A DNA stretch of 33,371 nt from Ignavibacteria bacterium (GTDB taxonomy: Bacteria > Bacteroidota > Ignavibacteria > Tepidaquicellales > OLB5): positions 1-33,371 of the forward strand of contig JACSRQ010000083.1 of the NCBI GenBank assembly GCA_014879675.1. The letters run 5' to 3'. Within the stretch, counting starts at the first letter, position 1, and every line of letters starts with the position of its first letter. Made by a program: the position numbers and the translations under genes. Below, in pieces: positions 14,005-15,593 of this stretch. The notes beneath the pieces are model-generated. The model searched no databases, was not told the DNA's origin, and was given only the letters and a program-made list of their open reading frames with translations.

Positions 14005-14880
14005 TTGAAAAGATTCAAAGCAGAACTGCTGCTTTTCCTCACTGCCACTATCTGGGCGGGTACCTTCCCTATTGTAAAGATTTCGATGTTATCCATTCCC
14101 CCGTTCTGGTTTGTGGGGATTCGTTTCCTTATAGGTGCTGTATTGTTTACACTGATCTTCTTCAGAAGGCTTGATTTCAGAGAACCGGGAATTTTAAAAG
14201 CGGGACTCATACTGGGATTTCTCCAGATGCTGGGATTCAGCATGCAAACAATTGGCATGATACACACTACAGCATCAAACTCCGCACTCATAACCGGAGT
14301 TACAATACTGATAGTCCCCTTTGCGCAGTACGCAATTACGAAAAAGAAAGTTCAGCTTGAAAACTGGATAGGAGTGATAATTGTCACAATTGGTTTATAT
14401 TACCTCACACAGCCGCAAATTAGCGGCGTGAATATCGGCGACCTGCTGACACTCATTTGCGCCTTCGCATGGGCGTTTTATATAATTTATGTTGATGTGT
14501 TCACAAACAAGTTTGATGTGATAACATTGATTTTCATCCAGCTTTGGTTTGTGGTAATTGCTGCCTGCGGACTGGGATTCGCCTTTGAAGACTTTTCCGC
14601 GATCCGGTTTACACAGGATGAAATCCTTGCATTCCTCTATATGGGAGTACTTGCAACATTTGTCACTACAATATTACTAAACCGTTACCAGAAACAAACT
14701 ACTCCGATACGTGCATCTATTATATATACCTGGGAGCAGCCGGCGGCAGTAATGCTTGCGGTCATAACCATAGGAGAACACTTCTCGCCCTGGCAGCTTA
14801 TTGGCGGCGGATTGATGGTGCTGGGAATACTATTTTCCGAAACATATGAGTTTTTCCGCAGCCGATTTAGCAACAGATAA
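14005..14880 (+). CDS. EamA/DMT-family transporter
   Basis: A ten-helix drug/metabolite transporter-superfamily protein of 291 residues with the two tandem EamA halves. The first starts FLTATIWAGTFPIVKISM, the second at GDLLTLICAFAWAFYIIYVD, each with the usual W-(A/T)-F-type opening; the end is 'TIGEHFSPWQLIGGGLMVLGIL'. The only start that keeps the first helix is TTG at 14005, 6 nt after the UbiA stop; no ATG fits. Most such proteins export small metabolites. In this operon a role in moving a lipid-linked sugar across the membrane is conceivable but unproven. The cargo is unknown. Confidence 0.9.
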   Translation: MKRFKAELLLFLTATIWAGTFPIVKISMLSIPPFWFVGIRFLIGAVLFTLIFFRRLDFREPGILKAGLILGFLQMLGFSMQTIGMIHTTASNSALITGVTILIVPFAQYAITKKKVQLENWIGVIIVTIGLYYLTQPQISGVNIGDLLTLICAFAWAFYIIYVDVFTNKFDVITLIFIQLWFVVIAACGLGFAFEDFSAIRFTQDEILAFLYMGVLATFVTTILLNRYQKQTTPIRASIIYTWEQPAAVMLAVITIGEHFSPWQLIGGGLMVLGILFSETYEFFRSRFSNR

Positions 14881-15308
14881 TTGGTGAATCATTTTCTTCT
14901 TAGTATTTGCGAAAACACATAATACAGTGTTCAACTCCGCTGGAGTCGTAATAATTTTACAATAGCATTTTTATAAATGTACGACCCCGACGTGGTCGGC
15001 AGAGTAATTCTAACCCGAATAGTATGATTAGAGTGCATGCGCTCTCCTCCGTTTTACCATAAGAGAGTCTCTCGATATTTCATAACTAAAATTCCAATCC
15101 CGCCAGGGATTGAAAATGGGTAAAATGAAGATGCCCAAAGTTATTCCGTCCCATACGGGACAGGATAGATGGGGGAAATCCGAAGGCTACCCATATTTCG
15201 TGCCTACGGCACGGGTGCGTGTCAACATGAATAACCGCCTGGCGGGTTATTAAATTGAATTTCATTTTTAATAACCACAGATTATTTTTAGATAATACAC
15301 GAAATTCA
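14881..15308. other. Gene-free stretch carrying a hairpin array
   Basis: No open frame with coding character is visible on either strand over these 428 nt. Apart from an AT-rich lead (14881-14930), it is filled by at least seven short hairpins, described in the repeat entry for 14934-15251. No promoter of the TTG / TAnnTTTG type was found before the acylphosphatase gene. Confidence 0.6.
14934..15251. repeat. Array of short hairpins with 3-4 nt loops
   Basis: In order: ACTCC-GCT-GGAGT (14934-14946); CCGAC-GTG-GTCGG (14987-14999); GAGTGC/GCGCTC (15031-15044, weak, with a G-T pair); GAGA-GTC-TCTC (15063-15073); CAATCCC-GCCA-GGGATTG (15095-15112); GTCCC-ATAC-GGGAC (15148-15161); CGTGCC-TAC-GGCACG (15199-15213); AATAACC...GGTTATT with GC/GC inside (15230-15251). 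Stem sequences differ, but four of them close the loop with C-C and G-G, and loops are 3-4 nt. No shared direct repeat, flanking target duplication or transposase is visible. They are not part of a gene. Confidence 0.7.
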
Positions 15309-15593
15309 ATGAACTATATTCAAAACGCGGCTGTTAAGATAATAGTATCCGGAAGAGTGCAGGGAGTGGGTTTCAGATACTATATTGCGCGATATGCCTC
15401 TGAGCTGGGATTAACAGGATACGCAAAGAACCTGTTCACCGGAGAAGTTGAGATCGCAGCCGAAGGCAGAAAGGAGTTACTTGATGCCCTGGCGGAAAAA
15501 GCGGGCCATGGACCTTCCGGCTCGCATATTAGCTCTTGCAAAGTTGAATGGCTTGACTTTAAGAAGAAATACGATAAATTTGAAATATTATAG
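15309..15593 (+). CDS. acyP: Acylphosphatase
   Basis: A 94-residue cytosolic acylphosphatase that hydrolyses carboxyl-phosphate bonds such as acetyl phosphate or 1,3-bisphosphoglycerate. The family signature GRVQGVGFRYY (residues 15-25) holds the phosphate-binding loop and the catalytic Arg23. The second motif GYAKNL supplies Asn41, the residue that positions the water. The frame runs back to an ATG at 15255, but that adds 18 AT-rich, unconserved residues. The ATG at 15309 gives the normal length and places Arg and Asn at the classical positions 23 and 41. Its 3' end contains a promoter candidate for the next gene. Confidence 0.93.
   Translation: MNYIQNAAVKIIVSGRVQGVGFRYYIARYASELGLTGYAKNLFTGEVEIAAEGRKELLDALAEKAGHGPSGSHISSCKVEWLDFKKKYDKFEIL
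15553..15582 (+). promoter_or_regulatory. Bacteroidota-type promoter for the porQ-like gene
   Basis: TTG at 15553-15555, 19-nt spacer, TAAATTTG at 15575-15582, inside the end of the acylphosphatase gene. Predicted start of transcription is near 15589, about 43 nt before the ATG at 15632. Confidence 0.45.

What the first reader, a model, noticed from the sequence alone, without database searches (positions are those of the whole stretch)
14934..15251. Dense array of unrelated hairpins with 3-4 nt loops between two operons
At least seven short hairpins lie within 320 nt with no gene. The stems differ in sequence, yet loop size and C-C/G-G closing pairs recur. This is not a tandem duplication, a CRISPR or a terminator cluster. 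Compensated stems of this kind suggest selection for structure, or a family of palindromic dispersed elements that insert near each other. I have the impression of seeing similar units in other environmental Bacteroidota, but I cannot verify that.
Basis: partly seen in the sequence, partly recalled or inferred. Interest (0 to 1): 0.65.

Follow-up and report, generated by a model that had tools for sequence, protein, structure and literature searches.

The report
Two mobile palindromic repeats, inserted nearby
The hairpin cluster is what is left of two small repeated DNA elements that landed between two genes of an Ignavibacteria-type bacterium; each belongs to a family found next to its own single-strand-DNA transposase gene, a transposase type that had been reported to have no such partner repeats.

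Summary
The array is real: 5 perfect hairpins in 329 nt against 0.36 expected in shuffles; "at least seven" needs weaker palindromes. The hairpins are not unrelated. Three (15095-15213) form one decayed copy of a 117-120-nt element: hairpin, GTAG tag, ~18 variable nt, central hairpin, ~19 variable nt, inverted tag, hairpin. This genome has 14 full and 2 partial copies. Two more (14932-15001) are a half-unit of a second family with 34 tagged copies. The orthologous gap is only 4-23 nt in four congeners. Each family flanks its own Y1 (HUH) transposase gene with a Y...Q..HH motif, the signature of TnpA "subclass 1.2", described as lacking REP partners (PMC6006769). In 142 such loci (about 137 distinct), almost all Bacteroidota, hairpins beside the gene are 12-20 times denser than in shuffles, and a GTAG tag sits 7-9 nt 3' of the hairpin, not at its 5' foot as in classical REPs. 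The triple-hairpin element recurs beside 61-74% identical transposases in other lineages. Best reading: REP/BIME-like, transposase-dependent elements with a different tag geometry. Mobilisation itself is inferred, not shown.

The parts
14932..15001 (-). Element B: half-unit of the C129-transposase family (outer hairpin, tag, spacer, inner hairpin when read on the minus strand); decayed
   Evidence: Second copy at C163:13808-13883, 75% identical; same order of parts upstream of the C129 tnpA; family of 34 tagged units in the genome, 0 in the reversed-pattern control. The window copy itself is too diverged to be among those 34.
14934..14946 (.). Inner hairpin of element B, ACTCC-GCT-GGAGT
14971..14979 (-). 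Tag of element B: CATTTATAA on the minus strand (family consensus CATTTATAG; last base lost)
14982..14999 (.). Outer hairpin of element B, CGACC...GGTCG, imperfect against the family form CGACCCC..GGGGTCG
15095..15213 (+). Element A: one full triple-hairpin unit (two inverted tagged hairpins around a central hairpin), C37-transposase family
   Evidence: 109.9 bits, model positions 1-118; 14 full copies in the genome; alignment A1
15095..15112 (+). H1, left outer hairpin CAATCCC-GCCA-GGGATTG
15113..15123 (+). Left tag, AAAATGGGTAA (family consensus ATATTGGTAG/ATATGGGTAG; final G lost in this copy only)
15144..15165 (+). H2, central hairpin TTCCGTCCC-ATAC-GGGACAGGA
   Evidence: 96% mean pairwise identity between copies
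15187..15196 (-). Right tag, CTACCCATAT (ATATGGGTAG on the minus strand), intact
15199..15213 (+). H3, right outer hairpin CGTGCC-TAC-GGCACG
15230..15251 (.). Further palindrome AATAACCGCCTGGCGGGTTATT, family not established
   Evidence: sequence; no extra genome copy seen
14005..14880 (+). EamA transporter gene, left neighbour (context)
   Evidence: PF00892 E = 6e-37
15309..15593 (+). Acylphosphatase gene, right neighbour (context; used for the site-occupancy test)
   Evidence: PF00708 E = 4e-24; orthologues in congeners

Best explanation
The array is two non-autonomous, REP/BIME-like palindromic elements that inserted near each other between an EamA transporter gene and an acylphosphatase gene. 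Each family depends in trans on its own single-copy Y1 (HUH-tyrosine) transposase of the Y...Q..HH type (subclass 1.2): C37 for element A, C129 for element B. Proposed mechanism: (1) when the region becomes single-stranded, the short stems with CC-NNN-GG loops fold; (2) the cognate TnpA binds the hairpin and cuts at or next to the TAG/CTA tag 7-9 nt from its foot; (3) two inverted tagged hairpins define the piece that is moved or copied to another intergenic site; (4) copies then decay, as this one has (left tag GTAG to GTAA). Shown here: anatomy, dispersal, linkage to transposase genes, tag position, near-empty orthologous site, decay. Inferred: binding, cleavage at the tag, strand transfer and transposase specificity. 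Because many of these genes are flanked by outer-tagged and inner hairpins on both sides, element A looks like that flank pair with the gene replaced by one central hairpin.
For: Dispersal: 14 full + 2 partial copies of A, 15 of 16 outside called ORFs. Islands versus spacers: hairpins and tags 85-96% identical between copies, spacers 42-45% at nearly constant length. Covariation: 16 cells with paired changes against 4.6 +/- 1.6 in shuffles and 0-4 in slid structures. Transposases: four intact Y...Q..HH genes in this genome, each flanked by its own hairpin family; element A lies 49 nt downstream of C37 tnpA. Linkage elsewhere: the triple-hairpin model hits beside 67% identical tnpA in another class (66.7 bits), beside 74%, 72% and 61% identical tnpA in named genomes (89, 77 and 77 bits). 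Generality: hairpins within 300 nt of such genes at 9.35, 5.75, 7.21 per kb against 0.46-0.55 in shuffles. Tag: GTAG at offset 9 is the strongest positional signal at intergenic hairpins of an unselected 727-kb sample (11 against 0.8) and absent at coding hairpins; at transposase loci GTAG peaks at offsets 7-9 (36, 55, 52 against 7.0). Site: 428 nt in this genome, 4, 5, 22 and 23 nt in four congeners and no element in any of 8 with the gene pair.
Against: No transposition event or excision product was seen; the compared congeners are only about 70-80% identical in these proteins, so the near-empty site is not a clean allele and boundaries to the base are not defined. Specificity of each transposase for its family rests on adjacency. 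Element A lies only downstream of C37 tnpA, with no hairpin upstream. The inward orientation of tags is clear in some loci but only 127 to 72 overall. The long-range pairing of the two tags does not covary at its one variable pair (11 of 17 unpaired), so the tags probably act singly. Loci were picked by similarity to C37 and are not independent.
Confidence: 0.8

Rival explanations
1. Each tnpA with its hairpins is an ordinary IS200/IS605-type insertion sequence and the gene-less units are its MITE-like derivatives (ends without a gene), so these are IS remnants rather than a REP system.
For: C37 TnpA passes the NCBIfam IS200/IS605 cut-off (57.7 vs 55) and fails the REP-transposase one (33.2 vs 80). 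Hairpins lie on both sides of the gene in most loci (28/33, 20/29, 55/72). Hairpin-to-tag distance resembles that of hairpin to cleavage site at IS200/IS605 right ends (own knowledge).
Against: In this genome the four genes are singletons, the other three 38-51% identical to C37, while units number 16, 32 and 34. PMC6006769 reports low copy number and no IS properties for this subclass. Tags mostly lie between hairpin and gene, not outside the hairpins.
Confidence: 0.2
2. The conserved stems are kept by host selection: transcribed RNA hairpins or DNA sites (mRNA stability, termination, nucleoid or gyrase binding), and the transposase link is historical.
For: Stems and tags are conserved while spacers drift; stem changes are compensated; classical REPs have such host roles (PMC8266576, PMC6006769).
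Against: The family is absent by BLAST from 12 congeners and the site is nearly empty in several; neighbouring genes are in all orientations; conservation also includes the unpaired tags, and the same units sit beside transposase genes in other lineages. Only weak terminator-like matches.
Confidence: 0.12
3. Chance or an artefact: AT-rich intergenic DNA that happens to fold, or an assembly error.
For: Single draft genome of 255 contigs.
Against: 0 of 1000 shuffles reach five hairpins; repeated copies with conserved parts; recurrence in independent assemblies including isolate genomes.
Confidence: 0.01

Closest known systems
GTAG-tagged REPs and TT dimers / BIMEs (Di Nocera 2013, PMC3733652)
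   Same: Short intergenic palindromes with a GTAG tag, in inverted pairs with tags inside, spacers of similar length but different sequence, some spacers holding stem-loops; many copies; linked to tyrosine transposases.
   Different: Tag lies 7-9 nt 3' of the hairpin instead of next to its 5' foot; a fixed central hairpin in element A; partner transposase is of the Y...Q..HH type rather than class 2 RAYT (Y...NP).
REPtrons: TnpA-REP (RAYT) plus REP (PMC6006769, PMC8266576)
   Same: Low-copy Y1 gene flanked by the palindromes that are scattered through the genome; each gene has its own repeat family.
   Different: Subclass 1.2 was reported as not REP-associated; the published search required GT[AG]G 0-2 nt 5' of a stem of at least 7 bp (PMC6006769), which these 5-6-bp stems with a 3' tag would fail.
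REPINs (Bertels and Rainey 2011, PMC3116915)
   Same: Two inverted REPs acting as one mobile unit dependent on a RAYT in trans.
   Different: Here the pair encloses a third, conserved hairpin and the tag geometry differs.
IS200/IS605 ends and their MITE-like derivatives
   Same: HUH-Y1 transposase closest to this family by model score; hairpin plus a nearby short site.
   Different: No multi-copy autonomous element seen in this genome; tags face the gene.

Membership tests
TnpA-Y1 subclass 1.2 (PMC6006769) | Y1 (HUH, one tyrosine) core domain | tested here: met
   Pfam Y1_Tnp 87.7 bits for C37, 86.9 for C129; HUH histidines and tyrosine invariant in alignment A3
TnpA-Y1 subclass 1.2 (PMC6006769) | Y motif Y---Q--HH | tested here: met
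   33/33, 29/29 and 77/80 loci, including the four of this genome
TnpA-Y1 subclass 1.2 (PMC6006769) | Subclass-specific C-terminal domain and position in the published tree | not tested
   A conserved C-terminal stretch after the HH is visible but was not compared with the published profile
Classical REP (GTAG class) | GTAG/GTGG at 0-2 nt 5' of the hairpin foot | tested here: not met
   GTAG peaks 7-9 nt 3' of the hairpin; the classical position shows no comparable peak at these genes
Classical REP (GTAG class) | Dispersed, mostly intergenic, multi-copy palindrome | tested here: met
   16, 32 and 34 units; 15 of 16 A copies outside called ORFs
REPtron (RAYT + REP) | Low-copy Y1 gene flanked by copies of the dispersed palindrome | tested here: met
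   C37, C54, C129 and C43 loci; dispersed counts
REPtron (RAYT + REP) | TnpA binds and cleaves single-stranded REP | not testable with these tools
   Needs purified protein
REPtron (RAYT + REP) | Class 2 transposase with Y---NP | tested here: not met
   Motif is Y---Q--HH; NCBIfam REP_Tyr_transpos 33.2 bits, below the cut-off of 80
IS200/IS605 insertion sequence | Autonomous multi-copy unit, near-identical copies | tested here: not met
   Four divergent single genes in this genome; not tested in other genomes
IS200/IS605 insertion sequence | Hairpins at both ends with cleavage sites outside them | tested here: inconclusive
   Hairpins on both sides in most loci, tags more often inward (63 vs 20, 35 vs 26, 127 vs 72); cleavage sites unknown
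Rfam RNA family / CRISPR / tandem repeat | Model match or direct repeat | tested here: not met

The most novel reading that the evidence does not exclude
TnpA subclass 1.2 with 3'-tagged hairpins is a separate, widespread REP-type system of Bacteroidota in which the GTAG tag occupies the cleavage-site position rather than the guide position, and whose gene-less form is a three-hairpin element.
Probability: 0.55. Interest if true: 0.68.

Novelty: new variant of a known kind. Interest (0 to 1): 0.52.

Why it matters
REP elements are among the commonest bacterial repeats, and how they spread is still open. A survey of Y1 proteins reported one subclass, 1.2, as having neither insertion-sequence features nor REP partners. 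The loci examined here nearly all have hairpin partners, and relatives of the gene occur in 111 of 247 sampled genomes of the phylum (not every match was checked for the motif). If right, this gives that subclass a substrate to test, adds a second hairpin-to-tag geometry to compare with classical REPs inside one genome (class 2 genes with 5'-GTAG repeats are present too), and explains many unannotated hairpin clusters in Bacteroidota intergenic DNA.

Tried and rejected
Host RNA family: no Rfam match. A long-range stem joining the two tags as the core of the structure: predicted, but its only strongly variable pair does not covary. Terminator cluster: two weak matches only. Direct BLAST of the element in relatives: too diverged, replaced by a covariance model. 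First regex search for the transposase start missed most loci, replaced by tblastn. The four-sequence alignment of element B is poor and is not used as evidence. Comparing near flanks with far flanks mixes intergenic and coding DNA, so shuffles of the near flanks and the own-genome intergenic baseline of 2.8 hairpins per kb were added. Structure prediction was not run; sequence already identifies the fold family.

Full report
Observation. Between the EamA gene (14005-14880) and the acylphosphatase gene (15309-15593) lie five perfect short hairpins in 329 nt; shuffles average 0.36 and never reach five. Nothing in Rfam matches.

Two elements, not unrelated hairpins. Searching the window's own genome with the stretch finds about fifteen further places. 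Fourteen full copies share one design: outer hairpin, an ATATTGGTAG-type tag, about 18 variable nt, a central hairpin CCGTCCC-N4-GGGACGG, about 19 variable nt, the tag inverted, and a second outer hairpin. Window 15095-15213 is one of them, with the left tag decayed from GTAG to GTAA. A covariance model finds these 14 plus two partial copies; 15 of the 16 lie outside called ORFs. Hairpins and tags are 85-96% identical between copies, spacers 42-45%. Window 14932-15001 belongs to a second family, in the order inner hairpin, spacer, tag, outer hairpin; a close second copy is at C163, and 34 tagged units of the family occur in the genome with none in the reversed-pattern control. A third family (GCTCC..GGAGC with ATGTTTGTAG) has 32 units, some in tandem at about 49 nt. 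Seven of 16 A copies lie within 500 nt of a B or GCTCC unit, against about 1.6 expected (P about 6e-4 on a simple model); the window, whose B unit is too decayed for the pattern, would be an eighth.

Transposases. The genome has four strong and four weak Y1_Tnp matches. The four strong ones carry Y...Q..HH, and each has its own hairpin family beside it: C37 has element A 49 nt downstream, C54 the GCTCC units, C129 the B units. PMC6006769 defines subclass 1.2 by Y---Q--HH and says it lacks typical terminal structures and IS properties, and that subclasses other than five class-2 ones are not REP-associated. Its REP search required GT[AG]G 0-2 nt 5' of a stem of at least 7 bp, which the units here would fail. 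The weaker Y1 genes examined, such as C181 and C40, score as REP transposases of class 2, and C181 is flanked by 5'-GTAG palindromes of the classical kind (by eye).

Generality. The motif is present in 33, 29 and 77. At least two hairpins lie within 400 nt in 33/33, 27/29 and 70/72 (the last counting loci with full flanks). Within 300 nt the density is 9.35, 5.75 and 7.21 per kb against 0.46-0.55 in dinucleotide shuffles of the same flanks. GTAG peaks at offset 9 in the first set (20 against 1.6) and at 7-9 in the others. Independently of any transposase, in 727 kb of the window's genome GTAG at offset 9 is the strongest positional signal at intergenic hairpins (11 against 0.8) and absent at coding ones.

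Element A follows its transposase. Model R1, built only from this genome, gives its best foreign matches beside close relatives of C37 TnpA: two copies directly downstream of a 67% identical gene in another class (66.7 and 66.4 bits), and copies beside 74%, 72% and 61% identical genes (89.3, 76.5 and 77.2 bits); the 74% case is labelled a Methylococcaceae MAG, which may be a binning error or transfer. In a 73% identical case (G218) the hits are weaker (44 bits) and dispersed. Adding the G128 copies gives stem covariation: 16 cells with paired changes against 4.6 +/- 1.6 in shuffles and 0-4 in slid structures. In other relatives the same model hits different families with the same order of parts next to their transposases.

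Site. In eight congeners with the same gene pair the gap is 4, 5, 22, 23, 93, 109, 320 and 496 nt, without elements A or B; here it is 428 nt. The elements are therefore lineage-specific additions, though the congeners are too distant to give exact junctions.

How it works. By analogy with REP and IS200/IS605 enzymes (PMC8266576), the transposase would fold and bind the single-stranded hairpin and cut nearby. The tag's position fits a cleavage site better than a 5' guide. This step, and movement itself, are inference. Whether to call it a REP system or a MITE-like derivative of an IS is open; single divergent genes with many units favour the former.

Verdict. The array itself is an ordinary member of a dispersed repeat class; the link to subclass 1.2 transposases and the 3' tag geometry appear unreported in the library I could search, which does not hold most subscription papers.

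Noticed in passing
own genome G000, C40, C89, C181, C255 (loci L015, L034, L035, L036): Four further Y1 genes of lower score, each beside its own palindrome family (for example AAACTGGAGTTT, GTCAGGA..TCCTGAC, GTAGCACAGACA..TGTCTGTG, CTCGTKCCACGAA); those of C181 resemble classical 5'-GTAG REPs.
   Followed up: partly
L012, C43 tnpA flanks: A fourth Y...Q..HH transposase is flanked by alternating GCGATGGGC..GCCCATCG and GCCCC..GGGGC hairpins with no GTAG-type tag found, so the tag is not universal.
   Followed up: partly
G000:C233:10990-11063: A truncated copy of element A with an internal deletion running from the loop of the central hairpin to the right outer hairpin, near two full copies that share downstream flanks (segmental duplication).
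   Followed up: no
G000:C2:2093-2265 and C125, C33: GCTCC-family units repeat in tandem every 49-50 nt, all in one orientation.
   Followed up: no
L238 (QYQN01000132.1): A contig labelled Methylococcaceae carries a 74% identical transposase with two triple-hairpin elements; either a binning error or transfer between phyla.
   Followed up: no
window 15030-15076 and 15230-15251: Palindromic stretches AGAGTGCATGCGCTCT, GAGAGTCTCTC and AATAACCGCCTGGCGGGTTATT inside the array, not assigned to a family.
   Followed up: no
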